A model generated the notes under the pieces. The model was not told the origin of the DNA. It did no database searches and saw nothing but the letters and a program-made list of their open reading frames with translations. The position numbers and the translations under genes were made by a program. Positions 1 to 36,258 of a stretch of DNA of 64,000 nucleotides are shown here, piece after piece (the first letter of the stretch is position 1; each line of letters opens with the position of its first letter). The stretch is from Eudorina sp. 2006-703-Eu-15 (Eukaryota; Chlorophyta; Chlorophyceae; Chlamydomonadales; Volvocaceae). The stretch lies in assembly GCA_003117195.1 (NCBI GenBank), contig BDSI01000085.1, positions 276,001 to 340,000 on the forward strand, read 5' to 3'.

Positions 1-3000
1 CGTCTTATTGCTTGCAGGCGCGGTGGCTGCTGTTGCGGATCGATTGGCAAGGTGCGATGGTAAGTCCGCGCCTACAAGGTGATGAGTCAGCCGCTTCGTG
101 ATTGGGAATCGGCCCCTTGCTCATGGCACGAGCTGACTCGCTTGGTGGTTACTTCTTATTGCTTGCAGGCGCGGTGGCTGCTGTTGCGGATCGATTGGCC
201 AGGTGCGGTGGTAAGTCCGCGCCTACATGTTGGCGAGTCAGCCGCTTCGTGATCGATTGGGAATCGGCCCCTTGCTCATAGCACGAGCTGACTCCCTTGG
301 TGGTTCTTATTGCTTGCAGGCACGGTGGCTGCTGTTGCGGATCGATTGGCCAGGTGCGGTGGTAAGTCCGCGCCTACATGTTGGCGAGTCAGCCGCTTCG
401 TGATCGCTTCGTTCAGCGGCGGGAGGGATCATGCGCGGGGCCGTTCGTGGGGTCGAGTGGCGGTAGGGATCATGCGCGGGGCCGTTCCTGGGGTTGAGCG
501 GCGGGAGGGATCATGCGAGGGGTGATTGCGAATCGGCCCCTTGCTCATGGCACGAGGTGACTCCCTTGGTCGTTACTTCTTATTGCTTACTTGCAGGCGC
601 GGTGGCTGCTGTTGCGGATCGATTGGCCAGGTGCGGTGGTAAGTCCGCGCCTACATGTTGACGAGTCAGCCACTTCGTGATCGATTGGGAATCGGCCACT
701 TGCTCATGGCACGAGCTGACTCCCTTGGTGGTTACTTCTTATTGCTTGCAGGCACGGTGGCTGCTGTTGCGGATCGATTGGCCAGGTGCGGTGGTAAGTC
801 CGCGCCTACATGTTGACGAGTCAGCCGCTTCGTGATCGATTGGGAATCGGCCCCTTGCTCATGGCACGAGGTGACTCCCTTGGTCGTTACTTCTTATTGC
901 TTGCAGGCACGGTGGCTGCTGTTGCGGATCGATTGGCCAGGTGCGGTGGTAAGTCCGCGCCTACATGTTGACGAGTCAGCCGCTTCGTGATCGATTGGGA
1001 ATCGGCCCCTTGCTCATAGCACGAGCTGACTCCCTTGGTGTTTACTTCTTATTGCTTACTTGCAGGCGCGGTGGCTGCTGTTGCGGATCGATTGGCAAGG
1101 TGCGGTGGTAAGTCCGCGCCTACATGTTGACGAGTCAGCCACTTCGTGATCGATTGGGAATCGGCCCCTTGCTCATAGCACGAGCTGACTCCCTTGGTGG
1201 TTACTTCTTATTGCTTGCAGGCACGGTGGCTGCTGTTGCGGATCGATTGGCAAGGTGCGATGGTAAGTCCGCGCCTACAAGGTGATGAGTCAGCCGCTTC
1301 GTGATTGGGAATCGGCCCCTTGCTCATGGCATGAGCTGACTCGCTTGGTGGTTACTTCTTATTGCTTGCAGGCGCGGTGGCTGCTGTTGCGGATCGATTG
1401 GCCAGGTGCGGTGGTAAGTCCGCGCCTACATGTTGACGAGTCAGCCGCTTCGTGATCGATTGGGAATCGGCCCCTTGCTCATAGCACGAGCTGACTCCCT
1501 TGGTGGTTACTTCTTATTGCTTGCAGGCACGGTGGCTGCTGTTGCGGATCGATTGGCCAGGTGCGGTGGTAAGTCCGCGCCTACATGTTGACGAGTCCGC
1601 CACTTCGTGATCGATTGGGAATCGGCCACTTGCTCATGGCACGAGCTGACTCCCTTGGTGGTTACGTCTTATTGCTTGCAGGCGCGGTGGCTGCTGTTGC
1701 GGATCGATTGGCAAGGTGCGATGGTAAGTCCGCGCCTACAAGGTGATGAGTCAGCCGCTTCGTGATTGGGAATCGGCCCCTTGCTCATGGCACGAGCTGA
1801 CTCGCTTGGTGGTTACTTCTTATTGCTTGCAGGCGCGGTGGCTGCTGTTGCGGATCGATTGGCCAGGTGCGGTGGTAAGTCCGCGCCTACATGTTGGCGA
1901 GTCAGCCGCTTCGTGATCGATTGGGAATCGGCCCCTTGCTCATAGCACGAGCTGACTCCCTTGGTGGTTCTTATTGCTTGCAGGCACGGTGGCTGCTGTT
2001 GCGGATCGATTGGCCAGGTGCGGTGGTAAGTCCGCGCCTACATGTTGGCGAGTCAGCCGCTTCGTGATCGCTTCGTTCAGCGGCGGGAGGGATCATGCGC
2101 GGGGCCGTTCGTGGGGTCGAGTGGCGGTAGGGATCATGCGCGGGGCCGTTCCTGGGGTTGAGCGGCGGGAGGGATCATGCGAGGGGTGATTGCGAATCGG
2201 CCCCTTGCTCATGGCACGAGGTGACTCCCTTGGTCGTTACTTCTTATTGCTTACTTGCAGGCGCGGTGGCTGCTGTTGCGGATCGATTGGCCAGGTGCGG
2301 TGGTAAGTCCGCGCCTACATGTTGACGAGTCAGCCACTTCGTGATCGATTGGGAATCGGCCACTTGCTCATGGCACGAGCTGACTCCCTTGGTGGTTACT
2401 TCTTATTGCTTGCAGGCACGGTGGCTGCTGTTGCGGATCGATTGGCCAGGTGCGGTGGTAAGTCCGCGCCTACATGTTGACGAGTCAGCCGCTTCGTGAT
2501 CGATTGGGAATCGGCCCCTTGCTCATGGCACGAGGTGACTCCCTTGGTCGTTACTTCTTATTGCTTGCAGGCACGGTGGCTGCTGTTGCGGATCGATTGG
2601 CCAGGTGCGGTGGTAAGTCCGCGCCTACATGTTGACGAGTCAGCCGCTTCGTGATCGATTGGGAATCGGCCCCTTGCTCATAGCACGAGCTGACTCCCTT
2701 GGTGTTTACTTCTTATTGCTTACTTGCAGGCGCGGTGGCTGCTGTTGCGGATCGATTGGCAAGGTGCGGTGGTAAGTCCGCGCCTACATGTTGACGAGTC
2801 AGCCACTTCGTGATCGATTGGGAATCGGCCCCTTGCTCATAGCACGAGCTGACTCCCTTGGTGGTTACTTCTTATTGCTTGCAGGCACGGTGGCTGCTGT
2901 TGCGGATCGATTGGCAAGGTGCGATGGTAAGTCCGCGCCTACAAGGTGATGAGTCAGCCGCTTCGTGATTGGGAATCGGCCCCTTGCTCATGGCATGAGC

Positions 3001-3173
3001 TGACTCGCTTGGTGGTTACTTCTTATTGCTTGCAGGCACGGTGGCTGCTGTTGCGGATCGATTGGCCAGGTGCGGTGGTAAGTCCGCGCCTACATGTTGA
3101 CGAGTCCGCCACTTCGTAAGCGATTGGGAATCGGCCCCTTGCTCATGGCACGAGCTGACTCCCTTGGTGGTTA
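1..3173 (+). repeat. Higher-order repeat, 1664 bp then 1509 bp
   Basis: The first bases of the window recur at 1665 and again at 3174, marked by the rare variant GTTACGTCTTATTG. The first higher-order copy is 1664 bp. The second is 1509 bp because one 155-bp unit is missing near its right end. Both copies share a 4-bp deletion in the T-rich tract (around 298 and 1966) that the matching place in array 2 (around 23266) does not have, so this copy pair formed after the two arrays separated, or was homogenised locally. Confidence 0.85.
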
Positions 3174-4929
3174 CGTCTTATTGCTTGCAGGCGCGGTGGC
3201 TGCTGTTGCGGATCGATTGGCAAGGTGCGATGGTAAGTCCGCGCCTACAAGGTGATGAGTCAGCCGCTTCGTGATTGGGAATCGGCCCCTTGCTCATGGC
3301 ACGAGCTGACTCGCTTGGTGGTTACTTCTTATTGCTTGCAGGCGCGGTGGCTGCTGTTGCGGATCGATTGGCCAGGTGCGGTGGTAAGTCCGCGCCTACA
3401 TGTTGGCGAGTCAGCCGCTTCGTGATCGATTGGGAATCGGCCCCTTGCTCATGGCACGAGGTGACTCCCTTGGTCGTTACTTCTTATTGCTTGCAGGCGC
3501 GGTGGCTGCTGTTGCGGATCGATTGGCCAGGTGCGGTGGTAAGTCCGCGCCTACATGTTGACGAGTCAGCCGCTTCGTGATCGATTGGGAATCGGCCCCT
3601 TGCTCATAGCACGAGCTGACTCCCTTGGTGGTTACTTCTTATTGCTTACTTGCAGGCGCGGTGGCTGCTGTTGCGGATCGATTGGCAAGGTGCGGTGGTA
3701 AGTCCGCGCCTACATGTTGACGAGTCAGCCACTTCGTGATCGATTGGGAATCGGCCCCTTGCTCATAGCACGAGCTGACTCCCTTGGTGGTTACTTCTTA
3801 TTGCTTGCAGGCACGGTGGCTGCTGTTGCGGATCGATTGGCAAGGTGCGATGGTAAGTCCGCGCCTACAAGGTGATGAGTCAGCCGCTTCGTGATTGGGA
3901 ATCGGCCCCTTGCTCATGGCATGAGCTGACTCCCTTGGTGGTTACTTCTTATTGCTTGCAGGCACGGTGGCTGCTGTTGCGGATCGATTGGCAAGGTGCG
4001 ATGGTAAGTCCGCGCCTACAAGGTGATGAGTCAGCCGCTTCGTAAGCGATTGGGAATCGGCCCCTTGCTCATGGCATGAGCTGACTCGCTTGGTGGTTAC
4101 TTCTTATTGCTTGCAGGCACGGTGGCTGCTGTTGCGGATCGATTGGCCAGGTGCGGTGGTAAGTCCGCGCCTACATGTTGACGAGTCCGCCACTTCGTAA
4201 GCGATTGGGAATCGGCCCCTTGCTCATGGCACGAGGTGACTCCCTTGGTGGTTACTTCTTATTGCTTGCAGGCGCGGTGGCTGCTGTTGCGGATCGATTG
4301 GCCAGGTGCGGTGGTAAGTCCGCGCCTACAAGGTGATGAGTCAGCCGCTTCGTGATTGGGAATCGGCCCCTTGCTCATGGCACGAGCTGACTCGCTTGGT
4401 GGTTACTTCTTATTGCTTGCAGGCGCGGTGGCTGCTGTTGCGGATCGATTGGCCAGGTGCGGTGGTAAGTCCGCGCCTACATGTTGGCGAGTCAGCCGCT
4501 TCGTGATCGATTGGGAATCGGCCCCTTGCTCATAGCACGAGGTGACTCCCTTGGTCGTTACTTCTTATTGCTTGCAGGCGCGGTGGCTGCTGTTGCGGAT
4601 CGATTGGCCAGGTGCGGTGGTAAGTCCGCGCCTACATGTTGACGAGTCAGCCACTTCGTGATCGATTGGGAATCGGCCACTTGCTCATGGCACGAGCTGA
4701 CTCCCTTGGTGGTTACTTCTTATTGCTTGCAGGCGCGGTGGCTGCTGTTGCGGATCGATTGGCCAGGTGCGGTGGTAAGTCCGCGCCTACATGTTGGCGA
4801 GTCAGCCGCTTCGTGATCGATTGCGGATCGGCCCCTTGCTCATGGCACGAGGTGACTCCCTTGGTCGTTACTTCTTATTGTTTGCAGGCGCGGTGGCTGC
4901 TGTTGCGGATCGATTGGCCAGGTGCGATG

Positions 4930-5084
4930 GTAAGTCCGCGCCTACATGTTGACGAGTCAGCCACTTCGTGATCGATTGGGAATCGGCCACTTGCTCATGG
5001 CACGAGCTGACTCCCTTGGTGGTTACTTCTTATTGCTTGCAGGCGCGGTGGCTGCTGTTGCGGATCGATTGGCCAGGTGCGGTG
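4930..5084 (+). repeat. Representative 155-bp cassette: 113-bp intron-like part plus 42-bp micro-exon-like part
   Basis: This unit shows the cassette plan. A GTAAGT donor starts at 4930. A CTGAC branch-point-like motif is at 5007-5011, its A lying 32 nt before the end of the intron-like part. A T-rich tract and TTGCAG acceptor end at 5042. Bases 5043-5084 form a 42-nt exon-like part, followed by the next GTAAGT at 5085. The intron-like part contains an 8-bp inverted repeat, GAGTCAGC at 4954-4961 and GCTGACTC at 5006-5013, and inside it a 5-bp hairpin, CGATT/AATCG, at 4973-4985. Read in the first frame the 42 nt encode ARWLLLRIDWPGAV. The signals are seen directly; splicing itself is an inference. 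Confidence 0.85.
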
Positions 5085-8000
5085 GTAAGTCCGCGCCTAC
5101 ATGTTGGCGAGTCAGCCGCTTCGTGATCGATTGCGGATCGGCCCCTTGCTCATAGCACGAGGTGACTCCCTTGGTGGTTACTTCTTATTGCTTGCAGGCA
5201 CGGTGGCTGCTGTTGCGGATCTATTGGCCAGGTGCGGTGGTAAGTCCGCGCCTACATGTTGACGAGTCAGCCACTTCGTGATCGATTGGGAATCGGCCAC
5301 TTGCTCATGGCACGAGCTGACTCCCTTGGTGGTTACTTCTTATTGCTTGCAGGCGCGGTGGCTGCTGTTGCGGATCGATTGGCAAGGTGCGATGGTAAGT
5401 CCGCGCCTACAAGGTGATGAGTCAGCCACTTCGTGATCGATTGGGGATCGGCCCCTTGCGCATGGCACGAGCTGACTCCTTTGGTGGTTACTTCTTATTG
5501 CTTGCAGGCGCAGTGGCTGCTGTTGCGGATCGATTGGCCAGGTGCGATGGTAAGTCCGCGCCTACAAGGTGATGAGTCAGCCACTTCGTGATCGCTTCGT
5601 TCAGCGGCGGGAGGGATCATGCGCGGGGCCGTTCGTGGGTCGAGTGGCGGTAGGGATCATGCGCGGGGCCGTTCGTGGGGTTGAGCGGCGGGAGGGATCA
5701 TGCGAGGGGTGATTGCGAATCGGCCCCTTGCTCATAGCACGAGGTGACTCCCTTGGTCGTTACTTCTTATTGCTTGCAGGCGCGGTGGCTGCTGTTGCGG
5801 ATCGATTGGCCAGGTGCGGTGGTAAGTCCGCGCCTACATGTTGACGAGTCAGCCACTTCGTGATCGATTGCGGATCGGCCCCTTGCTCATGGCACGAGGT
5901 GACTCCCTTGGTCGTTACTTCTTATTGTTTGCAGGCGCGGTGGCTGCTGTTGCGGATCGATTGGCCAGGTGCGGTTATAAGTCCGCGCCTACATGTTGAC
6001 GAGTCAGCCACTTCGTGATCGATTGGGAATCGGCCCCTTGCGCATGGCACGAGGTGACTCCCTTGGTGGTTACTTCTTATTGCTTGCAGGCGCGGTGGCT
6101 GCTGTTGCGGATCGATTGGCCAGGTGCGGTGGTAAGTCCGCGCCTACAAGGTGATGAGTCAGCCACTTCGTGATCGATTGCGGATCGGCCCCTTGCTCAT
6201 GGCACGAGGTGACTCCCTTGGTGGTTACTTCTTATTGCTTGCAGGCGCGGTGGCTGCTGTTGCGGATCGGTTGGCCAGGTGCGGTGGTAAGTCCGCGCCT
6301 ACATGTTGGCGAGTCAGCCACTTCGTGATCGATTGCGGATCGGCCCCTTGCTCATGGCACGAGCTGACTCCCTTGGTGGTTACTTCTTATTGTTTGCAGG
6401 CGCGGTGGCTGCTGTTGCGGATCGATTGGCCAGGTGCGGTGGTAAGTCCGCGCCTACATGTTGGCGAGTCAGCCGCTTCGTGATCGATTGCGAATCGGCC
6501 CCTTGCTCATGGCACGAGCTGATTCCCTTGGTGGTTACTTCTTATTGCTTGCAGGCGCGGTGGCTGCTGTTGCGGATCGATTGGCCAGGTGCGGTGGTAA
6601 GTCCGCGCCTACATGTTGGCGAGTCAGCCACTTCGTGATCGATTGCGGATCGGCCCCTTGCTCATGGCACGAGGTGACTCCCTTGGTCGTTACTTCTTAT
6701 TGTTTGCAGGCGCGGTGGCTGCTGTTGCGGATCGATTGGCCAGGTGCGGTTATAAGTCCGCGCCTACATGTTGACGAGTCAGCCACTTCGTGATCGATTG
6801 GGAATCGGCCCCTTGCGCATGGCACGAGGTGACTCCCTTGGTGGTTACTTCTTATTGCTTGCAGGCGCGGTGGCTGCTGTTGCGGATCGATTGGCCAGGT
6901 GCGGTGGTAAGTCCGCGCCTACAAGGTGATGAGTCAGCCACTTCGTGATCGATTGCGGATCGGCCCCTTGCTCATGGCACGAGGTGACTCCCTTGGTGGT
7001 TACTTCTTATTGCTTGCAGGCGCGGTGGCTGCTGTTGCGGATCGATTGGCCAGGTGCGGTGGTAAGTCCGCGCCTACATGTTGGCGAGTCAGCCACTTCG
7101 TGATCGATTGCGGATCGGCCCCTTGCTCATGGCACGAGGTGACTCCCTTGGTCGTTACTTCTTATTGTTTGCAGGCGCGGTGGCTGCTGTTGCGGATCTA
7201 TTGGCCAGGTGCGGTGGTAAGTCCGCGCCTACAAGGTGATGAGTCAGCCGCTTCGTGATTGGGAATCGGCCCCTTGCTCATGGCACGAGCTGACTCGCTT
7301 GGTGGTTACTTCTTATTGCTTGCAGGCGCGGTGGCTGCTGTTGCGGATCGATTGGCCAGGTGCGATGGTAAGTCCGCGCCTACAAGGTGATGAGTCAGCC
7401 ACTTCGTGATCGCTTCGTTCAGCGGCGGGAGGGATCATGCGCGGGCCGTTCGTGGGGTCGAGTGGCGGTAGGGATCATGCGCGGGCCGTTCGTGGGGTTG
7501 AGCGGCGGGAGGTATCATGCAGGGGGCCGTTCCTGGGGTTGAGCGGCGGGAGGGATCATGCGAGGGGTGATTGCGAATCGGCCCCTTGCTCATGGCACGA
7601 GGTGACTCCCTTGGTCGTTACTTCTTATTGCTTGCAGGCACGGTGGCTGCTGTTGCGGATCGATTGGCAAGGTGCGGTGGTAAGTCCGCGCCTACATGTT
7701 GACGAGTCAGCCACTTCGTGATCGATTGGGAATCGGCCACTTGCTCATGGCACGAGCTGACTCCCTTGGTGGTTACTTCTTATTGCTTGCAGGCGCGGTG
7801 GCTGCTGTTGCGGATCGATTGGCCAGGTGCGGTGGTAAGTCCGCGCCTACATGTTGGCGAGTCAGCCGCTTCGTGATAGATTGCGGATCGGCCCCTTGCT
7901 CATAGCACGAGGTGACTCCCTTGGTGGTTACTTCTTATTGCTTGCAGGCACGGTGGCTGCTGTTGCGGATCTATTGGCCAGGTGCGGTGGTAAGTCCGCG

Positions 8001-11000
8001 CCTACATGTTGACGAGTCAGCCACTTCGTGATCGATTGGGAATCGGCCACTTGCTCATGGCACGAGCTGACTCCCTTGGTGGTTACTTCTTATTGCTTGC
8101 AGGCGCGGTGGCTGCTGTTGCGGATCGATTGGCAAGGTGCGATGGTAAGTCCGCGCCTACAAGGTGATGAGTCAGCCACTTCGTGATCGATTGGGAATCG
8201 GCCCCTTGCGCATGGCACGAGCTGACTCCTTTGGTGGTTACTTCTTATTGCTTGCAGGCGCGGTGGCTGCTGTTGCGGATCGATTGGCAAGGTGCGATGG
8301 TAAGTCCGCGCCTACAAGGTGATGAGTCAGCCACTTCGTGATCGCTTCGTTCAGCGGCGGGAGGGATCATGCGCGGGGCCGTTCGTGGGGTCGAGTGGCG
8401 GTAGGGATCATGCGCGGGGCCGTTCGTGGGGTTGAGCGGCGGGAGGTATCATGCAGGGGGCCGTTCCTGGGGTTGAGCGGCGGGAGGGATCATGCGAGGG
8501 GTGATTGCGAATCGGCCCCTTGCTCATGGCACGAGGTGACTCCCTTGGTCGTTACTTCTTATTGCTTGCAGGCGCGGTGGCTGCTGTTGCGGATCGATTG
8601 GCAAGGTGCGATGGTAAGTCCGCGCCTACAAGGTGATGAGTCAGCCACTTCGTGATCGATTGGGAATCGGCCCCTTGCGCATGGCACGAGCTGACTCCTT
8701 TGGTGGTTACTTCTTATTGCTTGCAGGCGCGGTGGCTGCTGTTGCGGATCGATTGGCCAGGTGCGGTGGTAAGTCCGCGCCTACAAGGTGATGAGTCAGC
8801 CACTTCGTGATCGCTTCGTTCAGCGGCGGGAGGGATCATGCGCGGGGCCGTTCGTGGGGTCGAGTGGCGGTAGGGATCATGCGCGGGGCCGTTCGTGGGT
8901 TGAGCGGCGGGAGGTATCATGCAGGGGGCCGTTCCTGGGGTTGAGCGGCGGGAGGGATCATGCGAGGGGTGATTGCGAATCGGCCCCTTGCTCATGGCAC
9001 GAGGTGACTCCCTTGGTCGTTACTTCTTATTGCTTGCAGGCACGGTGGCTGCTGTTGCGGATCGATTGGCAAGGTGCGGTGGTAAGTCCGCGCCTACATG
9101 TTGACGAGTCAGCCACTTCGTGATCGATTGGGAATCGGCCACTTGCTCATGGCACGAGCTGACTCCCTTGGTGGTTACTTCTTATTGCTTGCAGGCGCGG
9201 TGGCTGCTGTTGCGGATCGATTGGCCAGGTGCGGTGGTAAGTCCGCGCCTACATGTTGACGAGTCAGCCACTTCGTGATCGATTGGGAATCGGCCACTTG
9301 CTCATGGCACGAGCTGACTCCCTTGGTGGTTACTTCTTATTGCTTGCAGGCGCGGTGGCTGCTGTTGCGGATCGATTGGCAAGGTGCGATGGTAAGTCCG
9401 CGCCTACAAGGTGATGAGTCAGCCACTTCGTGATCGCTTCGTTCAGCGGCGGGAGGGATCATGCGCGGGGCCGTTCGTGGGGTCGAGTGGCGGTAGGGAT
9501 CATGCGCGGGGCCGTTCGTGGGGTTGAGCGGCGGGAGGGATCATGCAGGGGGCCGTTCCTGGGGTTCTGCGGAGGGAGGGATCATGCGAGGGGTGATTGC
9601 GAATCGGCCCTTGCTCATGGCACGAGGTGACTCCCTTGGTCGTTACTTCTTATTGCTTGCAGGCGCGGTGGCTGCTGTTGCGGATCGATTGGCAAGGTGC
9701 GGTGGTAAGTCCGCGCCTACATGTTGGCGAGTCAGCCGCTTCGTGATCGCTTCGTTCAGCGGCGGGAGGGATCATGCGCGGGGCCGTTCGTGGGGTCGAG
9801 TGGCGGTAGGGATCATGCGCGGGGCCGTTCGTGGGGTTGAGCGGCGGGAGGGATCATGCGAGGGGTTATTGCGAATCGGCCCCTTGCTCATAGCACGAGG
9901 TGACTCCCTTGGTCGTTACTTCTTATTGCTTGCAGGCGCGGTGGCTGCTGTTGCGGATCGATTGGCCAGGTGCGGTGGTAAGTCCGCGCCTACATGTTGA
10001 CGAGTCAGCCACTTCGTGATCGATTGGGAATCGGCCACTTGCTCATGGCACGAGGTGACTCCCTTGGTGGTTACTTCTTATTGCTTGCAGGCGCGGTGGC
10101 TGCTGTTGCGGATCGATTGGCCAGGTGCGGTGGTAAGTCCGCGCCTACATGTTGGCGAGTCAGCCGCTTCGTGATCGCTGCGAATCGGCCCCTTGCTCAT
10201 GGCACGAGCTGATTCCCTTGGTGGTTACTTCTTATTGCTTGCAGGCGCGGTGGCTGCTGTTGCGGATCGATTGGCCAGGTGCGGTGGTAAGTCCGCGCCT
10301 ACATGTTGGCGAGTCAGCCACTTCGTGATCGATTGCGGATCGGCCCCTTGCTCATGGCACGAGGTGACTCCCTTGGTGGTTACTTCTTATTGCTTGCAGG
10401 CATGGTGGCTGCTGTTGCGGATCGATTGGCCAGGTGCGGTGGTAAGTCCGCGCCTACAAGGTGATGAGTCAGCCACTTCGTGATCGCTTCGTTCAGCGGC
10501 GGGAGGGATCATGCGCGGGGCCGTTCGTGGGGTCGAGTGGCGGTAGGGATCATGCGCGGGGCCGTTCGTGGGGTTGAGCGGCGGGAGGGATCATGCAGGG
10601 GGCCGTTCCTGGGGTTGAGCGGAGGGAGGGATCATGCGAGGGGTGATTGCGAATCGGCCCCTTGCTCATGGCACGAGGTGACTCCCTTGGTCGTTACTTC
10701 TTATTGCTTGCAGGCGCGGTGGCTGCTGTTGCGGATCGATTGGCAAGGTGCGGTGGTAAGTCCGCGCCTACATGTTGACGAGTCAGCCACTTCGTGATCG
10801 ATTGGGAATCGGCCACTTGCTCATGGCACGAGCTGACTCCCTTGGTGGTTACTTCTTATTGCTTGCAGGCGCGGTGGCTGCTGTTGCGGATCGATTGGCC
10901 AGGTGCGGTGGCAAGTCCGCGCCTACATGTTGGCGAGTCAGCCGCTTCGTGATCGATTGCGGATCGGCCCCTTGCTCATGGCACGAGGTGACTCCCTTGG

Positions 11001-12584
11001 TGGTTACTTCTTATTGCTTGCAGGCATGGTGGCTGCTGTTGCGGATCGATTGGCCAGGTGCGGTGGTAAGTCCGCGCCTACATGTTGACGAGTCAGCCAC
11101 TTCGTGATCGATTGCGAATCGGCCCTTGCTCATGGCACGAGGTGACTCCCTTGGTGGTTACTTCTTATTGCTTGCAGGCACGGTGGCTGCTGTTGCGGAT
11201 CGATTGGCAAGGTGCGGTGGTAAGTCCGCGCCTACATGTTGACGAGTCAGCCACTTCGTGATCGATTGCGGATCGGCCCCTTGCTCATGGCACGAGCTGA
11301 CTCCCTTGGTGGTTACTTCTTATTGCTTGCAGGCGCGGTGGCTGCTGTTGCGGATCGATTGGCCAGGTGCGGTGGCAAGTCCGCGCCTACATGTTGACGA
11401 GTCAGCCACTTCGTGATCGATTGCGGATCGGCCCTTGCTCATGGCACGAGGTGACTCCCTTGGTGGTTACTTCTTATTGCTTGCAGGCGCGGTGGCTGCT
11501 GTTGCGGATCGATTGGCCAGGTGCGATGGTAAGTCCGCGCCTACAAGGTGATGAGTCAGCCACTTCGTGATCGCGTCGTTCAGCGGCGGGAGGGATCATG
11601 CGCGGGGCCGTTCGTGGGGTCGAGTGGCGGTAGGGATCATGCGCGGGGCCGTTCGTGGGGTTGAGCGGCGGGAGGGATCATGCAGGGGGCCGTTCCTGGG
11701 GTTGAGCGGCGGGAGGGATCATGCGAGGGGTGATTGCGAATCGGCCCCTTGCTCATGGCACGAGGTGACTCCCTTGGTCGTTACTTCTTATTGCTTGCAG
11801 GCGCGGTGGCTGCTGTTGCGGATCGATTGGCAAGGTGCGGTGGTAAGTCCGCGCCTACATGTTGACGAGTCAGCCACTTCGTGATCGATTGGGAATCGGC
11901 CACTTGCTCATGGCATGAGCTGACTCCCTTGGTGGTTACTTCTTATTGCTTGCAGGCACGGTGGCTGCTGTTGCGGATCGATTGGCCAGGTGCGGTGGTA
12001 AGTCCGCGCCTACATGTTGACGAGTCAGCCACTTCGTGATCGATTGCGGATCGGCCCCTTGCTCATGGCACGAGGTGACTCCCTTGGTGGTTACTTCTTA
12101 TTGCTTGCAGGCACGGTGGCTGCTGTTGCGGATCGATTGGCCAGGTGCGGTGGTAAGTCCGCGCCTACATGTTGACGAGTCAGCCACTTCGTGATCGATT
12201 GCGAATCGGCCCCTTGCTCATGGCACGAGGTGACTCCCTTGGTGGTTACTTCTTATTGCTTGCAGGCACGGTGGCTGCTGTTGCGGATCGATTGGCAAGG
12301 TGCGGTGGTAAGTCCGCGCCTACATGTTGACGAGTCAGCCACTTCGTGATCGATTGCGGATCGGCCCCTTGCTCATGGCACGAGCTGACTCCCTTGGTCG
12401 TTACTTCTTATTGTTTGCAGGCGCGGTGGCTGCTGTTGCGGATCGATTGGCCAGGTGCGGTGGCAAGTCCGCGCCTACATGTTGACGAGTCAGCCACTTC
12501 GTGATCGATTGCGGATCGGCCCCTTGCTCATGGCACGAGGTGACTCCCTTGGTGGTTACTTCTTATTGCTTGCAGGCGCGGTGG

Positions 12585-12952
12585 TAGCCCATCCAGGTGT
12601 TGTTAAGATGGTAGGTAAGTTTTGCTTCGCCAGCTTTCCACGTCAGCTTTCCACACACGATACACGCCCTCGCGTCGCTGCTTGCAGGATCGCTCATCGG
12701 AAGGAGTGCTTCGTCGGGTTTGCCTACACGTTCACTCACCGCCTGACGCATCCCCCTGCATTCCCAAGACCAAAGCCCATGCTGTGCACCTTAACGAGAT
12801 CCCGCATCCGGTAGGTGACGATAGTGCTGGGCTCGGGATCATGTGCCGGGTCGCTCGTTGTTGGGTCGGGCCCAGGGAGGGATCGGGTAACTGGGTCGGG
12901 CCCGGGGAATCATCATTTGCATGCTCCTGATCTTGCAGCACAGCCCTTGCTT
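12585..12952 (+). other. Array 1 exit segment, no confident gene
   Basis: The satellite breaks off in its exon-like part and continues into unique sequence with further donor-like and acceptor-like motifs: TGGTAGGTAAGT at 12609-12620, and TTGCAG before 12680 and before 12940. This suggests that the sequence the satellite grew from once continued into more exons. Open frames are short and not recognisable. The 30-bp sequence at 12794-12823, listed separately, also occurs at the far end of the block. Confidence 0.4.
12794..12823 (+). repeat. 30-bp sequence present at both ends of the block (left copy)
   Basis: The stretch from ACGAGATCCC to GGTGACGATA is identical to 20879-20908. Similarity extends on both sides: GTGCACCTT upstream in both places, and CTCGGGATCATG downstream, where the right copy runs directly into the 41-bp repeat. 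It contains a possible splice donor, GTAGGTGA, at 12811. The block is therefore flanked by two diverged copies of one sequence about 8.1 kb apart. The equivalent left copy in block A' is 33642-33671. Confidence 0.8.
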
Positions 12953-13092
12953 CAGCTCCGCGCCGCAGCCACCTCAGCCAAGCCGTTCAGCTTCGCGCCG
13001 CAGCCACCTCAGCCAAGCCGTTCAGCTCCGCGCCGGAGCCACCTCAGCCAAGCCGTTTAGCTCCGCGAAGCAGCCACCTCAGCCAAGCCGCT
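12953..13092 (+). repeat. 35-bp tandem repeat, four copies
   Basis: Four consecutive 35-bp units start at 12953, 12988, 13023 and 13058, with a core of CCACCTCAGCCAAGCCG. Units differ by one to a few bases. The same four units occur in block A' at 33801-33940. The reading frame through them is open and rich in Pro, Ser and Gln, but there is no recognisable protein, so it is annotated as a minisatellite. Confidence 0.9.
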
Positions 13093-13330
13093 CAGCACAG
13101 CGCAGCGCAGCCTTTGCACAAGCATTCACTTTGTACACTATTGATTTGGTACAATGCCGTAGACCCGTGAGCTTTGATCCCGTCACTCTTCTCCCCCCCC
13201 ATCCCTTATGCGCTGCGATGCCCCTCGCGAGATGGAGCGTATTTACGTGCAGGACCGCTCATGATGATAGGTGATAGGCCTGGTCGGTGTTGTATGTGGC
13301 TGTGCGATAATACGAATCTGCCCGCGCGTT

Positions 13331-13577
13331 ATGGCACGAGCTGACTCCCTTGGTCGTTACTTCTTATTGCTTGCAGGCGCGGTGGCTGCTGTTGCGGATC
13401 GATTGGCCAGGTGCGGTGGTAAGTCCGCGCCTACAAGGTGATGAGTCAGCCGCTTCGTGATCGATTGCGAATCGGCCCCTTGCTTAGGGCACGAGCTGAC
13501 TCCCTTGGTCGTTACTTCTTTTTGCTTGCAGGCGCGGTGGCTGCTGTTGCGGATCGATTGGCCAGGTGCGGTGGTAA
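13331..13577 (+). repeat. Two-unit island of the 155-bp satellite inside the block
   Basis: Two satellite units sit isolated in unique sequence. The first is ordinary. The second is diverged: CTTAGGGCACGAG replaces CTCATGGCACGAG, the T tract is longer, and the exon-like part runs into GTGGTAACTTGCAG instead of GTAAGTCC. The island enters and leaves unique sequence abruptly. It could be a remnant of the seed from which the satellite expanded, or a late insertion. The equivalent in block A' is 34179-34425, and the second unit recurs near 36259-36353 because of the 1928-bp duplication. Confidence 0.88.
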
Positions 13578-19014: not shown

Positions 19015-20159
19015 GGGGGTGTGTCGCGCCTTCCGGCGTTCCGGGTCCCGGGGAGGGACCCGAGGGGATCGGACCGCGGGACGACCTACCCTCGTGGGAC
19101 TGGGCGAGCGGGAGAGGGCGCTGCGCTTTGGGCCTAGGAGGGGCGAGAACTTCCGCGTCGCGCGCAGGCTCCTTTGGAGTCTCGGACGTTTTCCCCCACA
19201 TCCTGTTCACCTTCCGGGTTGTCGCGATGGCGATTGCTGGTGGCGTGGCGTGCTGGGTAGTTTACCTTCCTGGGAGGAGGGGAAGGCGCTGGCTACCGTA
19301 GCAGGTTAGTTCGCGCTTTTGGTAGTTGTGTAGTCGGCGTAGTGGGCTTTCAGTAGCACTGCGCAGTTATTTGACAGGTGGCCAGCTGGTGTTTGTAGAG
19401 TTGGTGAGCAGGCTTCGAACTTGTGTGTCGTGGCAGTGTAGGGGACCGCCCCTCCCTGCCCCTCTCAGTGTGGGAGGTGCGGGGTTGTACCCGCGCGGCG
19501 TCGGACGACCAGTTAGAGTAGCCTAGTTTATTTGTAAGACGCGCGCGGAGGCGCCGCGCTGTGCTGTGTCCCGGCCCATTGTGACAATGCGGCCCAAACG
19601 TATGCAGCATGTGACACCTCGACACAAATTCGCCCAAATGAACTCCGGATTCCACAGAAAGATTCTCTTACGACCTTGTCTGGGCATTCGAAGTTCGCGA
19701 AATGCCATTCACCTAGCGGCGGCTTGCATGCCCGACACCATCGTCGATCCCACCGCGGATGGGTGCCATGAAAGGCTCACAGCGCATATTGCACGGATGT
19801 AGCGATGCAACTGAAATATGATACGAACATATCTTCGGTAGTCGACAGGGCTGGTAGAGCGCTTTGCAGCAATTGCAGCCACTACCTCCAGCCGAGCTTC
19901 GCAAACTTCTCGCGCAATGTGACTGAACGTCATCATAATGAGAATCAGAACTGGCTGGCCACGACCGAGGCGTCGCTCGGAACTTTTCTTCGGTTTTAGG
20001 GACCATGGAAATCGCCCAGCCAGCTGGTCCTTGTCACGATACCTTTCGCCGTCTGAGATCAGCGCCGCCTCATGCTTGTGCACAAAATCCAATGCCTGAA
20101 GCATGTACGAAGCAGCAGTAGTGAAATTGCCATATTGTACGACTTATAGGCCAGAATTC
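19015..20159. other. Block sequence downstream of the recombinase; no confident gene
   Basis: From about 19530 the sequence becomes less GC-rich. On the minus strand an open frame of 131 codons (20104-19709) starts with a protein-like segment, ALDFVHKHEAALISDGERYR, and is also open in block A' (42854-42459). The differences I compared between the copies change amino acids, which does not suggest selection. A single TTTTAGGG at 19993 is not a telomere tract. Confidence 0.25.
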
Positions 20160-20167
20160 TATATAAA
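20160..20167 (+). promoter_or_regulatory. TATA-box-like site
   Basis: TATATAAA lies in a locally AT-rich stretch and is conserved in block A' at 42910-42917. If used on the plus strand it would start transcription near 20190-20200, toward array 2. No coding frame follows, so the transcript would be non-coding or would run into the satellite. A TGTAA, the usual chlorophycean poly(A) signal, occurs at 20533-20537. Assignment as a promoter is inference only. Confidence 0.3.
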
Positions 20168-20441
20168 CCGGCAATTCACCTTCTTCTCACCAAGCAGCTG
20201 TATCAGGAACAGCTTACATGAAGCTCTCTTACAGCACCCGCGCTGAAGCTTAGGAGTCCTTTCACTGTCCCGGAAGCCCTGCTAACTCGGTCGCAGCCGA
20301 ACAGCCTCAACGTCCAAGGGGAGCTCACGATGTTTAATCGCCTGCAAGAGGCGTTTGCTGGTCGCCAGTGCTTACGGTACAGTCCAAGGTCGATGCTCCC
20401 TTGCCATGCCGGAATCGCCGTTCCTTTAGATTCTTTAGATT

Positions 20442-20496
20442 CTTGACTATACATTTATTATTTGTTGCTGTTGAAATGTCACAAAGAATAGTCAAG
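20442..20496. other. Inverted repeat with 9-bp arms
   Basis: CTTGACTAT at 20442-20450 and ATAGTCAAG at 20488-20496 are exact reverse complements separated by 37 AT-rich bases. It is preceded by a doubled 10-bp sequence (TTTAGATTC). The arms are conserved in block A' at about 43192-43246. Function unknown. Confidence 0.5.
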
Positions 20497-20878
20497 GTCA
20501 GGTTCCGGTCGACAGCGAAGTCGCAAGCGCCGTTGTAAGCCTTACGTGAGTGCTGGCTTGTGGATTACGTGCTATTGGACTGTTACTTGAAGCTCGTTTC
20601 GGTTCAATAACGGGGCGTGACCATTGTGACAACGTGCGTCCGACCGCAACATGCTTGGCATGCCTGCTGACTGTATTGATGTTTCTGGGCGTGGAAACGG
20701 TTTGCGCACTGATCTGGGATCACATTAACATTGCGCTTCGTAGTACCTCTTATTGTCAACCTCTTATCCCGCCGCGTTTTTCCTTCCCCGCACATACAGA
20801 CCCGAGGACCAGCTAAGCTTGCTCAACAAGAACCGTGCAAATGTGTCGAAGACCGCCGCCGAGTGCACCTTTGCCGTC

Positions 20879-20908
20879 ACGAGATCCCGCATCCGGTAGG
20901 TGACGATA
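20879..20908 (+). repeat. 30-bp sequence present at both ends of the block (right copy)
   Basis: Identical to 12794-12823. It lies immediately before the first 41-bp repeat of array 2, so it marks the block-to-array border. The equivalent in block A' is 43629-43658, in front of array 3. Sequence between 20500 and this site shows no gene. Confidence 0.8.
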
Positions 20909-20921
20909 TGGCTCTGCTCCC

Positions 20922-21100: not shown

Positions 21101-21586
21101 GGTGATTGCGAATCGGCCCCTTGCTCATGGCACGAGGTGACTCCCTTGGTCGTTACTTCTTATTGCTTGCAGGCACGGTGGCTGCTGTTGCGGATCGATT
21201 GGCAAGGTGCGGTGGTAAGTCCGCGCCTACATGTTGGCGAGTCAGTCGCTTCGTGATCGCTTCGTTCAGCGGCGGGAGGGATCATGCGCGGGCCGTTCGT
21301 GGGGTCGAGTGGCGGTAGGGATCATGCGCGGGGCCGTTCCTGGGGTTGAGCGGCGGGAGGGATCATGCGAGGGGTGATTGCGAATCGGCCCCTTGCTCAT
21401 GGCACGAGGTGACTCCCTTGGTCGTTACTTCTTATTGCTTACTTGCAGGCGCGGTGGCTGCTGTTGCGGATCGATTGGCAAGGTGCGGTGGTAAGTCCGC
21501 GCCTACATGTTGACGAGTCAGCCACTTCGTGATCGATTGGGAATCGGCCACTTGCTCATGGCACGAGCTGACTCCCTTGGTGGTTA

Positions 21587-22969
21587 CTTCTTATTGCTTG
21601 CAGGCACGGTGGCTGCTGTTGCGGATCGATTGGCAAGGTGCGATGGTAAGTCCGCGCCTACAAGGTGATGAGTCAGCCGCTTCGTGATTGGGAATCGGCC
21701 CCTTGCTCATGGCATGAGCTGACTCGCTTGGTGGTTACTTCTTATTGCTTGCAGGCGCGGTGGCTGCTGTTGCGGATCGATTGGCCAGGTGCGGTGGTAA
21801 GTCCGCGCCTACATGTTGACGAGTCAGCCGCTTCGTGATCGATTGGGAATCGGCCCCTTGCTCATAGCACGAGCTGACTCCCTTGGTGGTTACTTCTTAT
21901 TGCTTGCAGGCACGGTGGCTGCTGTTGCGGATCGATTGGCCAGGTGCGGTGGTAAGTCCGCGCCTACATGTTGACGAGTCCGCCACTTCGTGATCGATTG
22001 GGAATCGGCCACTTGCTCATGGCACGAGCTGACTCCCTTGGTGGTTACGTCTTATTGCTTGCAGGCGCGGTGGCTGCTGTTGCGGATCGATTGGCAAGGT
22101 GCGATGGTAAGTCCGCGCCTACAAGGTGATGAGTCAGCCGCTTCGTGATTGGGAATCGGCCCCTTGCTCATGGCATGAGCTGACTCGCTTGGTGGTTACT
22201 TCTTATTGCTTGCAGGCGCGGTGGCTGCTGTTGCGGATCGATTGGCCAGGTGCGGTGGTAAGTCCGCGCCTACATGTTGACGAGTCAGCCGCTTCGTGAT
22301 CGATTGGGAATCGGCCCCTTGCTCATAGCACGAGCTGACTCCCTTGGTGGTTACTTCTTATTGCTTGCAGGCACGGTGGCTGCTGTTGCGGATCGATTGG
22401 CCAGGTGCGGTGGTAAGTCCGCGCCTACATGTTGACGAGTCCGCCACTTCGTGATCGATTGGGAATCGGCCACTTGCTCATGGCACGAGCTGACTCCCTT
22501 GGTGGTTACGTCTTATTGCTTGCAGGCGCGGTGGCTGCTGTTGCGGATCGATTGGCAAGGTGCGATGGTAAGTCCGCGCCTACAAGGTGATGAGTCAGCC
22601 GCTTCGTGATTGGGAATCGGCCCCTTGCTCATGGCATGAGCTGACTCGCTTGGTGGTTACTTCTTATTGCTTGCAGGCGCGGTGGCTGCTGTTGCGGATC
22701 GATTGGCCAGGTGCGGTGGTAAGTCCGCGCCTACATGTTGACGAGTCAGCCGCTTCGTGATCGATTGGGAATCGGCCCCTTGCTCATAGCACGAGCTGAC
22801 TCCCTTGGTGGTTACTTCTTATTGCTTGCAGGCACGGTGGCTGCTGTTGCGGATCGATTGGCCAGGTGCGGTGGTAAGTCCGCGCCTACATGTTGACGAG
22901 TCCGCCACTTCGTGATCGATTGGGAATCGGCCACTTGCTCATGGCACGAGCTGACTCCCTTGGTGGTTA
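21587..22969 (+). repeat. Higher-order repeat of 461 bp, three copies
   Basis: The three-unit group (155 + 155 + 151 bp) repeats at 21587, 22048 and 22509, with the next start at 22970. The last two steps are marked by the GTTACGTCTTATTG variant and all by the GAGTCCGCCACTTCG variant at their right ends. It is a local expansion found in array 2 only. Array 1 has the same trio within its 1664-bp higher-order unit. Confidence 0.85.
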
Positions 22970-25900
22970 CGTCTTATTGCTTGCAGGCGCGGTGGCTGCT
23001 GTTGCGGATCGATTGGCAAGGTGCGATGGTAAGTCCGCGCCTACAAGGTGATGAGTCAGCCGCTTCGTGATTGGGAATCGGCCCCTTGCTCATGGCACGA
23101 GCTGACTCGCTTGGTGGTTACTTCTTATTGCTTGCAGGCGCGGTGGCTGCTGTTGCGGATCGATTGGCCAGGTGCGGTGGTAAGTCCGCGCCTACATGTT
23201 GGCGAGTCAGCCGCTTCGTGATCGATTGGGAATCGGCCCCTTGCTCATAGCACGAGCTGACTCCCTTGGTGGTTACTTCTTATTGCTTGCAGGCACGGTG
23301 GCTGCTGTTGCGGATCGATTGGCCAGGTGCGGTGGTAAGTCCGCGCCTACATGTTGGCGAGTCAGCCGCTTCGTGATCGCTTCGTTCAGCGGCGGGAGGG
23401 ATCATGCGCGGGGCCGTTCGTGGGGTCGAGTGGCGGTAGGGATCATGCGCGGGGCCGTTCCTGGGGTTGAGCGGCGGGAGGGATCATGCGAGGGGTGATT
23501 GCGAATCGGCCCCTTGCTCATGGCACGAGGTGACTCCCTTGGTCGTTACTTCTTATTGCTTACTTGCAGGCGCGGTGGCTGCTGTTGCGGATCGATTGGC
23601 CAGGTGCGGTGGTAAGTCCGCGCCTACATGTTGACGAGTCAGCCACTTCGTGATCGATTGGGAATCGGCCACTTGCTCATGGCACGAGCTGACTCCCTTG
23701 GTGGTTACTTCTTATTGCTTGCAGGCACGGTGGCTGCTGTTGCGGATCGATTGGCCAGGTGCGGTGGTAAGTCCGCGCCTACATGTTGACGAGTCAGCCG
23801 CTTCGTGATCGATTGGGAATCGGCCCCTTGCTCATGGCACGAGGTGACTCCCTTGGTCGTTACTTCTTATTGCTTGCAGGCACGGTGGCTGCTGTTGCGG
23901 ATCGATTGGCCAGGTGCGGTGGTAAGTCCGCGCCTACATGTTGACGAGTCAGCCGCTTCGTGATCGATTGGGAATCGGCCCCTTGCTCATAGCACGAGCT
24001 GACTCCCTTGGTGTTTACTTCTTATTGCTTACTTGCAGGCGCGGTGGCTGCTGTTGCGGATCGATTGGCAAGGTGCGGTGGTAAGTCCGCGCCTACATGT
24101 TGACGAGTCAGCCACTTCGTGATCGATTGGGAATCGGCCCCTTGCTCATAGCACGAGCTGACTCCCTTGGTGGTTACTTCTTATTGCTTGCAGGCACGGT
24201 GGCTGCTGTTGCGGATCGATTGGCAAGGTGCGATGGTAAGTCCGCGCCTACAAGGTGATGAGTCAGCCGCTTCGTGATTGGGAATCGGCCCCTTGCTCAT
24301 GGCATGAGCTGACTCGCTTGGTGGTTACTTCTTATTGCTTGCAGGCACGGTGGCTGCTGTTGCGGATCGATTGGCCAGGTGCGGTGGTAAGTCCGCGCCT
24401 ACATGTTGACGAGTCCGCCACTTCGTAAGCGATTGGGAATCGGCCCCTTGCTCATGGCACGAGCTGACTCCCTTGGTGGTTACGTCTTATTGCTTGCAGG
24501 CGCGGTGGCTGCTGTTGCGGATCGATTGGCAAGGTGCGATGGTAAGTCCGCGCCTACAAGGTGATGAGTCAGCCGCTTCGTGATTGGGAATCGGCCCCTT
24601 GCTCATGGCACGAGCTGACTCGCTTGGTGGTTACTTCTTATTGCTTGCAGGCGCGGTGGCTGCTGTTGCGGATCGATTGGCCAGGTGCGGTGGTAAGTCC
24701 GCGCCTACATGTTGGCGAGTCAGCCGCTTCGTGATCGATTGGGAATCGGCCCCTTGCTCATGGCACGAGGTGACTCCCTTGGTCGTTACTTCTTATTGCT
24801 TGCAGGCGCGGTGGCTGCTGTTGCGGATCGATTGGCCAGGTGCGGTGGTAAGTCCGCGCCTACATGTTGACGAGTCAGCCACTTCGTGATCGATTGGGAA
24901 TCGGCCCCTTGCTCATAGCACGAGCTGACTCCCTTGGTGGTTACTTCTTATTGCTTGCAGGCACGGTGGCTGCTGTTGCGGATCGATTGGCAAGGTGCGA
25001 TGGTAAGTCCGCGCCTACAAGGTGATGAGTCAGCCGCTTCGTGATTGGGAATCGGCCCCTTGCTCATGGCATGAGCTGACTCCCTTGGTGGTTACTTCTT
25101 ATTGCTTGCAGGCACGGTGGCTGCTGTTGCGGATCGATTGGCAAGGTGCGATGGTAAGTCCGCGCCTACAAGGTGATGAGTCAGCCGCTTCGTAAGCGAT
25201 TGGGAATCGGCCCCTTGCTCATGGCATGAGCTGACTCGCTTGGTGGTTACTTCTTATTGCTTGCAGGCACGGTGGCTGCTGTTGCGGATCGATTGGCCAG
25301 GTGCGGTGGTAAGTCCGCGCCTACATGTTGACGAGTCCGCCACTTCGTAAGCGATTGGGAATCGGCCCCTTGCTCATGGCACGAGGTGACTCCCTTGGTG
25401 GTTACTTCTTATTGCTTGCAGGCGCGGTGGCTGCTGTTGCGGATCGATTGGCCAGGTGCGGTGGTAAGTCCGCGCCTACAAGGTGATGAGTCAGCCGCTT
25501 CGTGATTGGGAATCGGCCCCTTGCTCATGGCACGAGCTGACTCGCTTGGTGGTTACTTCTTATTGCTTGCAGGCGCGGTGGCTGCTGTTGCGGATCGATT
25601 GGCCAGGTGCGGTGGTAAGTCCGCGCCTACATGTTGGCGAGTCAGCCGCTTCGTGATCGATTGGGAATCGGCCCCTTGCTCATAGCACGAGGTGACTCCC
25701 TTGGTCGTTACTTCTTATTGCTTGCAGGCGCGGTGGCTGCTGTTGCGGATCGATTGGCCAGGTGCGGTGGTAAGTCCGCGCCTACATGTTGGCGAGTCAG
25801 CCGCTTCGTGATCGATTGCGGATCGGCCCCTTGCTCATGGCACGAGGTGACTCCCTTGGTCGTTACTTCTTATTGTTTGCAGGCGCGGTGGCTGCTGTTG

Positions 25901-34330: not shown

Positions 34331-36258
34331 CTTAGGGCACGAGCTGACTCCCTTGGTCGTTACTTCTTTTTGCTTGCAGGCGCGGTGGCTGCTGTTGCGG
34401 ATCGATTGGCCAGGTGCGGTGGTAACTTGCAGACACGCCTTGGCCATCAGGACCGAGTGAGTGGTGTGAGACGGGGCGATCCAACCGCTGGGGGAGCGTA
34501 GGTGCAGCTCCACAGTTGTGCGGCTTACATCAGCGCGTCCCGTCCTTGCTTGGTCCATGGCCTCTCGTGCGGGCCGTGTTTGTGTTTAAGGCTTTGCGCC
34601 CCTGCACGGACCCTGGCCCCGGGGTCCAGGGGTCCGTACCCTCCCGCAGTCTGGATTGAGGGGCTTGCTTAACTCTGACAATGCGCCCCTGGGGCCTCGG
34701 CCGCCAGCGGCTGACCCGCTCACGGATGAGCAGGGTAGTGGAGATGCCGCCTCACCGGACGGGTTGCCCACGAGTGCTGGCTTTGGCGTCGATATGGCTC
34801 CTGCTGTCGTGCCGGTCGTGCACGTTTATCAGTTGGGTCGTCAGCCTCCATTGCACTGCCTCTTGCTGAAGTGCAGGCGAGTGCAGCTGTCCCACATAAC
34901 ACCGAGGTTCGATGAGCTAGTCATCATGGTTTGGTATGAGCTCGGCGTCCGGTCATGCAGCGGTTACAGTTGGGAGTTGTCGAGTTCAAGTGCGCGTCCC
35001 GCTCGGCTTTCATGAACGATGCCAAACATCATTCTTTGAATAACAAGACCAAACACTTCAGATACTTATAACCAGGCGCGGAAGGATTATTGCAGAATCT
35101 GCCAGGCCATGCCCGGCAAGCAGCAATTTATTATGTTAATGTTCTCCGCTTTCTTAGCTTATCTTGTATTTGACGGCGACATTAGAATGTGGCTGAGGCC
35201 AACACAACCATAGCATTTTTGTGTTCTGAACAGCGACCTCTTACAAATTGGTGGCCTCACCAACTACATCATAATTTCGTTTTGTCCTGGATAGCATCCC
35301 CTGGGCTGTGGTGGCCAGCAGAACCGCAATCGGCACGACGCGCTCGCTTTCAGGTGGTCCGCCTCGGGGTCTGCGTGCGACAGCAACTGACCCTGGCGGG
35401 CCGTGGCGATTACCCCGGGCTACCACGCAGGCAAGATTCTCCCGGGGGCGCCGCCCATGCCAGCTGGGGGCCCAGCGGGGGCAAGGGAAGGAGGCGGCAG
35501 AGCCACGGCGGGCACCCTGCGGCGCTGCCACTCGCCCATCATATGGAACTTGGATGGCAGCCCAAGGTTCTCTGGGGCAGGTGCGGTGGCGTGATGCAGT
35601 GCGGATCCGTTCAGGAGGTGGCGCGGCGAGTCATGCCCCTACTCCCGGTGGGAGGGCCAGGTCGTCGTGCGATGTGAGGTGGCGGTGGCGGTGCGGTGTG
35701 ATGTAATGTGATGCGGGATCCTGGGATCCGGGCTAGCGGGTGGCAAGGGTGCTGTGGCGTGGTTTAGAAGGGGGAGATGGCTCGGTCACGGAGGAAGGGT
35801 TCCGGGAGCGAAGGGGGCCTTTACCTGAGTCAGATGGCTAGTGTCTTCCCTGGTTGTGTCCCTAAGACTCCGTTGTTTGCCAGGACGGGTCGGCTCACAA
35901 CCCCTCGGTCGTCCCATTGCCTTTGCCGCATGCGTCCAGGTCGGACCGGCGGCGTTGAGGACGGTGGCGGCGGTATGCTCGACGGCCGGCCGCCGCCGGC
36001 GAGGCGCCACGCGCCCATATCGGCGGTGGACTGGCCGGCTGATGAGTTGATGGCGTTCCGGCGGCAGCAAGCGAAGGCGGCGGCGGCGGCGGCGGCGCTG
36101 GGGCACGACCCCGATGGTCCGCCGGCAATGACGTCCTCCCCGTCAGCGTCCGAGTCGGAGGAAGGTACGGCTGCCCGTCGTTGCGGGGACGGGACTCGCG
36201 ACGAACAGGGCGCACTCCGCACTGCCCTACTAACCCAGCCCGCCACCACAGTCATTTG
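34331..36258 (+). repeat. 1928-bp tandem duplication, first copy
   Basis: Together with 36259-38186 this forms an exact-looking tandem duplication. It corresponds to 13483-15410 of block A, which is single there. Its left border lies inside the diverged unit of the satellite island (CTTAGGGCACGAG), and its right border is CAGTCATTTG just before the hairpin. The two borders share TTG, so the junction at 36258/36259 shows 3 bp of microhomology. Confidence 0.93.

What the first reader, a model, noticed from the sequence alone, without database searches (positions are those of the whole stretch)
4930..5084. The 155-bp satellite unit has the full layout of a spliceosomal intron plus a 42-nt micro-exon
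Seen: GTAAGT donor, CTGAC with its A 32 nt before the acceptor, T-rich tract, TTGCAG acceptor, then 42 nt to the next GTAAGT, repeated roughly 70 times per array in three arrays and always in one direction. Known: these match donor, branch-point and acceptor consensus of algal introns. Inferred: the satellite expanded from an intron-containing gene segment, or transcripts of it can be spliced many times. It recalls introner elements (introns that multiply), but here intron and exon amplify together in tandem.
Basis: partly seen in the sequence, partly recalled or inferred. Interest (0 to 1): 0.9.

Follow-up and report, generated by a model that had tools for sequence, protein, structure and literature searches.

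The report
Satellite made of intron–exon units
In an unnamed, probably algal genome, hundreds of tandem 155-letter repeats each carry donor-, branch-point- and acceptor-like intron motifs around a 42-letter segment, in arrays that mostly follow a conserved promoter-like leader, so they are likely copied into one long RNA and would be spliced dozens of times into a non-coding product.

Summary
The window holds 210 copies of the 42-nt segment; TTGCAG precedes all 210, and 197 are followed by GT (194 GTAAGT). Arrays 2 and 3 follow a ~1.4-kb leader that has ~40 related places in the genome. At other loci the unit sits inside 0.9–1.4 kb multi-exon-like repeats. Related leaders also head a second array family (38-nt exon, 91-nt intron) whose exon does not align with the first beyond chance; the longest words the families share are the acceptor (13), branch (10) and, tied with one unrelated word, donor (8) blocks. 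A splice model from 11 host introns scores units far above reverse strand and shuffles, but prefers a donor 8 nt inside the 42-nt segment. Family-1 exons vary three-fold less than introns; family 2 shows no such contrast. Exon changes show no coding bias. Best reading: a dispersed family of promoter-led non-coding transcription units whose exon–intron unit amplifies in tandem and is probably spliced. No RNA evidence was reachable. A silent satellite grown from a gene fragment remains the main rival.

The parts
4930..5042 (+). predicted intron of one 155-bp unit: GTAAGT donor at 4930, branch-like CTGAC with A at 5010, TTGCTTGCAG acceptor ending 5042
   Evidence: sequence read; counts over 210 copies
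5043..5084 (+). predicted 42-nt exon of the unit (34 nt if the alternative donor CAG|GTGCGG is used)
   Evidence: exon columns vary 3-fold less than intron columns across 142 unique unit types
1..13573 (+). array 1: 74 exon copies with 41-bp minisatellite blocks inside some introns; runs in from the left window edge (its leader lies at C85:272991-274421, left of the window)
12580..13335 (+). tail of array 1: further donor- and acceptor-like words, exon-like stretch ending ..CGCATCCG|GTAGGTGACG, 35-bp repeat at 12951-13112
19500..20895 (+). leader of array 2; TATATAAA at 20160; predicted first exon ends ..CGCATCCG at 20895, donor GTAGGT at 20896
   Evidence: 49 matched pieces, about 40 places; sequence; alignment
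21173..34421 (+). array 2: 72 exon copies, with tail at 33428-34183
42250..43645 (+). leader of array 3; TATATAAA at 42910
43924..58618 (+). array 3: 63 full exon copies; ends inside an exon at about 58618, no tail
45447..45640 (+). example of the 41-bp minisatellite inside an intron of the array

Best explanation
The arrays are tandem copies of a predicted exon-intron unit, most of them downstream of a conserved promoter-like leader, and are likely transcribed from it as one long RNA whose many introns would be removed, leaving a non-coding RNA built of repeated short exons. Shown: the leader-array order and common orientation, the constant acceptor, the second family with the same splice words but other exons, and the lack of coding bias. 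Inferred: transcription from the TATA-like box, splicing of each unit, the exact donor, and the idea that unequal exchange can lengthen the array at little cost because all but 42 nt of each added unit would be spliced out, which would keep splice words while exon and intron bodies drift between families.
For: Window counts. Leader: 49 matched pieces, by my count 40 separate places, a lower bound. Of 31 leader copies whose downstream side I looked at, 12 are followed by 155-bp units, 6 by arrays of the 129-bp family, 2 by a single degenerate unit of it (L036, L058), 5 by a 38-bp and 2 by a 41-bp minisatellite, 4 by neither; the non-array cases were seen over only about 1-3 kb downstream. All 18 arrays run in the leader's direction; no exon of either family was found on the reverse strand of the 20 loci scanned for that. 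Second family: 49 exon matches, CAG before 48, GTAAGT after 41. Longest exact words shared by the two consensuses: TTGCTTGCAGGCG 13, GAGCTGACTC 10, then GGTAAGTC and ATGGCACG 8 each (in 300 Markov controls 13 was never reached, 10 or more in 10). Exons do not align above chance (78 of 500 shuffles as good), intron interiors weakly (20 of 500). Splice model from 11 host introns. Predicted donor GT in 345 of 360 exon copies over 11 loci, varying mainly at +3/+4 (GTAAGT 233, GTCAGT 57, GTATGT 37). Family 1: variant fraction 0.017 in exon against 0.053 in intron; 1 of 20000 random column sets as quiet. No synonymous bias in 33 exon substitutions in any frame.
Against: No RNA, EST or annotated transcript could be reached. 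Family 2 shows no exon/intron contrast (0.060 exon, 0.047 intron). Within family 1 the five core columns (GT, branch A, AG) are not significantly quieter than other intron columns (0.147 of random sets), and the exon block ranks 10th of 155 rotations. The small host model prefers a donor 8 nt inside the segment in 117 of 142 family-1 types and a donor inside the exon in 20 of 34 family-2 types; only 1 of the 11 host donors is GTAAGT. Family-2 scores are less distinct: 3.5% of shuffles reach the unit median. Shared words may reflect common descent only. No exon-exon junction copies in the genome at up to 3 mismatches. C1 arrays have no leader in the 6 kb upstream that I fetched. A TGTAA word (algal poly(A) signal, recalled) lies at 20534 between TATA box and array 2.
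Confidence: 0.5

Rival explanations
1. A plain satellite that grew from a fragment of an old multi-exon gene: the splice-like words are inherited and the arrays are silent.
For: Strong homogenisation (142 unique unit types among 299 extracted); core splice columns not quieter than other intron columns within family 1; no exon/intron contrast in family 2; arrays end at arbitrary points of the unit, e.g. about 58618; C1 arrays without a leader in the 6 kb fetched; no transcript evidence.
Against: The two families have drifted apart in exons and largely in intron interiors but keep the splice words in order; family-1 exon quieter than intron; 18 arrays follow a related leader in one direction.
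Confidence: 0.3
2. The leader plus array is the non-coding part of a transposable element, and the repeats matter for its movement rather than for a host RNA.
For: Dispersed copies on many contigs and both strands; a tyrosine-recombinase-like stretch at 18673-19014 (Pfam E 0.029, below cut-off); a transposon-like ORF downstream of the C52 leader.
Against: That ORF belongs to a high-copy family (154 matches) most of whose listed places are not leader places; no Pfam domain at E<=0.5 in six frames of 13.6-20.9 kb; leader upstream boundaries differ between the three copies compared. Target-site duplications were not searched for.
Confidence: 0.13
3. The introns carry guide RNAs (box C/D snoRNAs) and the arrays are an intronic snoRNA cluster as known from Chlamydomonas (recalled).
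For: RTGATGA near the intron start together with CTGA near the end in 92 of 240 simple family-1 introns.
Against: RTGATGA is in 33 of 157 window introns and in none of 34 family-2 unit types; no Rfam match at E<=1 in window 19500-21900 or in L032, none at gathering score in the window.
Confidence: 0.03
4. The exons code a repeat protein (14 codons each).
For: 42 nt is a multiple of 3 and one frame is free of stops in all 360 exon copies scanned.
Against: 33 exon substitutions: 7 synonymous in that frame where about 9 are expected; the family-2 exon is mostly 38 nt, so the frame would shift at each unit; no match at E<=1 among the 7998 scored candidates.
Confidence: 0.02

Closest known systems
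Firre lncRNA with its repeating RNA domain (mammals; passages of PMC4820808 seen)
   Same: A non-coding transcript many of whose exons are copies of one local repeat (7 of 13 exons in human, 11 of 23 in mouse, per that paper).
   Different: The paper defines local repeats as discontinuous within one locus; here a 42-nt exon and a ~113-nt intron form one tandem unit, 63-74 per array, at many loci behind related leaders, and no RNA is shown.
Introner elements (recalled; papers only seen in search listings)
   Same: Multiplying intron sequences with good splice signals.
   Different: Introners insert singly into host genes; here intron and exon multiply together head to tail.
Tandem exon duplication in coding genes (recalled)
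   Same: Exon plus flanking intron duplicated, presumably by unequal exchange.
   Different: Much higher copy number, 42-nt exon, no coding bias.
Satellites of Chlamydomonas and other volvocine algae (recalled; passages of PMC8226300 seen)
   Same: Homogenised tandem repeats with higher-order units.
   Different: Complete intron-like layout and a leader; no repeat library could be searched, so a described repeat of this sequence is not excluded.

Membership tests
spliceosomal intron | GT donor and AG acceptor in proper spacing | tested here: met
   GT in 345 of 360 and AG in 359 of 360 exon copies over 11 loci
spliceosomal intron | sites score like host introns, above shuffles | tested here: met
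   family 1: 17.3 bits against host mean 12.7, reverse 6.8, shuffles 8.4; donor position ambiguous by 8 nt; family 2: 14.6 against 8.0 and 9.2
spliceosomal intron | removed from a transcript | not testable with these tools
   no RNA data reachable
introner element | similar introns inserted singly in many unrelated host genes | tested here: inconclusive
non-coding RNA with repeated exons (Firre-like) | exons are copies of one repeat | tested here: inconclusive
   sequence fits; exon status is predicted only
non-coding RNA with repeated exons (Firre-like) | no protein-coding constraint | tested here: met
intronic box C/D snoRNA cluster | boxes C and D conserved in every intron | tested here: not met
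   both in 92 of 240 family-1 introns; box C in 0 of 34 family-2 unit types
satellite DNA | long homogenised tandem arrays | tested here: met
transposable element | own enzyme | tested here: inconclusive
   no Pfam domain in six frames of 13.6-20.9 kb; weak recombinase relic
transposable element | fixed ends with target-site duplications | not tested
   upstream boundaries of three copies differ; duplications not searched

The most novel reading that the evidence does not exclude
A 'splice-neutral satellite': a family of promoter-led non-coding loci in which tandem repeats expand as whole exon-intron units, so that the spliceosome removes about three quarters of every added copy; splicing itself is what lets the satellite grow inside a live transcription unit, and selection on that keeps the splice words while everything else drifts.
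Probability: 0.3. Interest if true: 0.8.

Novelty: new variant of a known kind. Interest (0 to 1): 0.6.

Why it matters
If spliced, one pre-RNA would carry 60–74 near-identical introns: a natural test of how the spliceosome pairs donors and acceptors when the choices are nearly equal, and of whether splicing shields a genome from repeat expansion. It would also show a route by which exon and intron multiply together, distinct from introners.

Tried and rejected
Coding repeat: no synonymous bias, no protein match for the three joined frames among 7998 scored candidates. Minus-strand ORF in the leader (19709-20143): changes about equal over codon positions, with stops in three of four relatives compared, so not coding. 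Known RNA: no Rfam match. snoRNA cluster: box C not general. Processed copies: exon–exon junctions of both families absent from the assembly at up to 3 mismatches; this speaks against retrocopies, not against splicing. Structured intron: family-2 consensus intron folds better than shuffles (z -3.6), family-1 consensus weakly (z -1.7), the window unit not (z -0.2), a tail intron not (z +0.6), so no common structure is claimed. A rotation test of splice columns on a first unit set was not significant (0.55 and 0.41). Transposon: the ORF downstream of the C52 leader is a high-copy family. A protein near the window's right end gave no relatives among the candidates scored. Plasmid collection: no match. 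Ten paper searches listed no title or abstract start that describes such arrays; they cover only the held open-access library, and I read passages of two papers.

Full report
What is there. The window is bases 276001–340000 of contig C85 of a 181-Mb assembly in 3033 contigs. It holds three long arrays of a 155-bp unit with 74, 72 and 63 exon copies, plus one stray copy at 36308. In the given unit the predicted intron is 4930–5042 and the predicted exon 5043–5084. Over the 210 copies TTGCAG always precedes the 42-nt segment; the donor words are GTAAGT 194, ATAAGT 6, GCAAGT 6, GTAACT 3, TAAGTC 1, so GT follows in 197 and GC in 6. Intron length varies because a 41-bp minisatellite sits in some introns. 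That scan used ungapped matching and so cannot find exons with indels; a scan anchored in the intron 3' end gave 212 sites in the window, and alignment of 142 unique unit types from 11 loci (299 units of 135–175 bp) shows few exon indels.

Other copies in the genome. The unit recurs on contigs C1, C25, C146, C195, C286, C1695 and C181. There 1–4 units sit inside a 0.9–1.4 kb higher-order tandem repeat together with a roughly 0.7-kb tail that has its own donor- and acceptor-like words. The same tail follows arrays 1 and 2 in the window (12580–13335 and 33428–34183); array 3 breaks off inside an exon at about 58618.

The leader. Upstream of arrays 2 and 3 lies a leader (19500–20895, 42250–43645); that of array 1 lies left of the window (C85:272991–274421). 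A search with 19500–20930 gave 49 matched pieces at 70–100% identity, which I count as 40 places, a lower bound. TATATAAA stands at 20160 and 42910; the only other TATAAA on the window's + strand, at 43198, is also in a leader. The first predicted exon ends ..CGAGATCCCGCATCCG before GTAGGTGACG. I looked downstream of 31 leader copies: 12 carry the 155-bp family, 6 arrays of the 129-bp family, 2 a single degenerate unit of it (L036, L058), 5 a 38-bp and 2 a 41-bp minisatellite, and 4 neither. The copies without arrays were seen over about 1–3 kb only. All 18 arrays run in the leader's direction. The C1 arrays have no leader in the 6 kb upstream that I fetched. The leader's longest minus-strand frame is not coding.

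The second family is the main comparative evidence. L028 and relatives (leader 70–75% identical) carry a 129-bp unit: 38-nt exon and 91-nt intron, with some units of 127–133 bp. The family consensuses share as longest exact words the acceptor block TTGCTTGCAGGCG (13), the branch block GAGCTGACTC (10) and the donor block GGTAAGTC (8), in the same order; one further 8-mer (ATGGCACG) is not a splice word. In 300 first-order Markov controls the longest shared word was 12 once, 11 once, 10 eight times and 8 or 9 in 89. So the acceptor word is clearly above chance, the branch word marginal alone, the donor word not; their order and place carry the rest. Exons do not align beyond chance (78 of 500 shuffles as good); intron interiors weakly (20 of 500).

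Splice model. From profile coordinates of host chaperonin (PF00118) genes I placed introns between exon pairs; 11 of 14 pairs gave one, 3 gave none. GT/GC and AG were required and a general donor/acceptor preference chose among candidates, so the model leans on common consensus. The introns are 113–911 nt. Family 1: 142 unit types mean 17.3 bits, reverse strand 6.8, shuffles 8.4; host introns left out one at a time 12.7 (4.5–18.5). Family 2: 34 types mean 14.6, reverse 8.0, shuffles 9.2, 3.5% of shuffles at the unit median. The best acceptor is the predicted one in at least 139 of 142 family-1 types. The best donor is CAG|GTGCGG, 8 nt inside the 42-nt segment, in 117 of 142, and in family 2 a site inside the exon in 20 of 34. 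The family-1 alternative GT is present in 331 of 360 exon copies; CAGGT is in 9 of 34 family-2 types. I keep GTAAGT as the likelier donor because it matches the general consensus and is shared by both families, but this is not settled.

Selection. In family 1 exon columns vary less than intron columns (0.0174 against 0.0530; loci with a variant 0.86 against 1.90; 1 of 20000 random column sets as quiet). Among contiguous blocks the exon ranks 10th of 155 rotations, the best starting 11 nt upstream, that is acceptor plus most of the exon. In family 2 there is no contrast (0.060 against 0.047). The five core splice columns of family 1 are not significantly quieter than other intron columns (0.147), and a rotation test on a first unit set was negative too. 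T, G and A of the branch motif do not vary in 142 types. Donors vary mainly at +3 and +4 (GTAAGT, GTCAGT, GTATGT, GTAGGT), which a donor tolerates (general knowledge). Exon changes: 33 distinct, 7 to 9 synonymous by frame where 8 to 10 are expected, so not coding.

Reading. The parts fit a dispersed family of non-coding transcription units in which exon and intron amplify together. Transcription and splicing remain inferred. The strongest rival is a silent satellite from a gene fragment, which the within-family data do not exclude; the between-family pattern argues against it. A transposon frame is not excluded either: transposon-like pieces lie nearby.

Known relatives. Firre is the nearest concept: 7 of 13 human and 11 of 23 mouse exons are copies of one repeat (passages of PMC4820808). 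Introners multiply introns alone (recalled). Ten searches of the open-access library listed no paper whose title or abstract start describes tandem exon–intron satellites in algae; passages were seen only of PMC4820808 and PMC8226300.

Noticed in passing
window 5866-44010: Arrays 1 and 2 with the 8 kb between are a recent segmental duplication (5866-15410 matches 26707-36258 at 99.7%; 13480-21259 matches 36256-44010 at 98.2%).
   Followed up: partly
window 18673-19014: Tyrosine-recombinase-like stretch (Pfam PF00589, E 0.029, below cut-off) between the arrays.
   Followed up: partly
window 17396-17566; L031, L038, L052, L054, L057: A 38-bp minisatellite related to that in the window's spacer (aligned for L031 and L038; by eye for the others) fills the place behind several other leaders.
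   Followed up: no
L036, L038, L058: Runs of GGGTCGGTC a few hundred bases behind leader copies.
   Followed up: no
C85 near 267530 (L024); window about 58990; L027; L035: Short telomere-like words (CCCTAAACCC, CTAGGGTTTA) near array or leader edges.
   Followed up: no
whole assembly G000: Size, contig number and G+C resemble what I take, from recall of the column order, to be the Eudorina column of Table 1 of PMC8226300 (3180 contigs, 61.4% G+C); species not tested.
   Followed up: no
L025 (C85:340001-350000): Adenosine-deaminase (editase) domain gene on + and ubiquitin hydrolase gene on - just right of the window.
   Followed up: no
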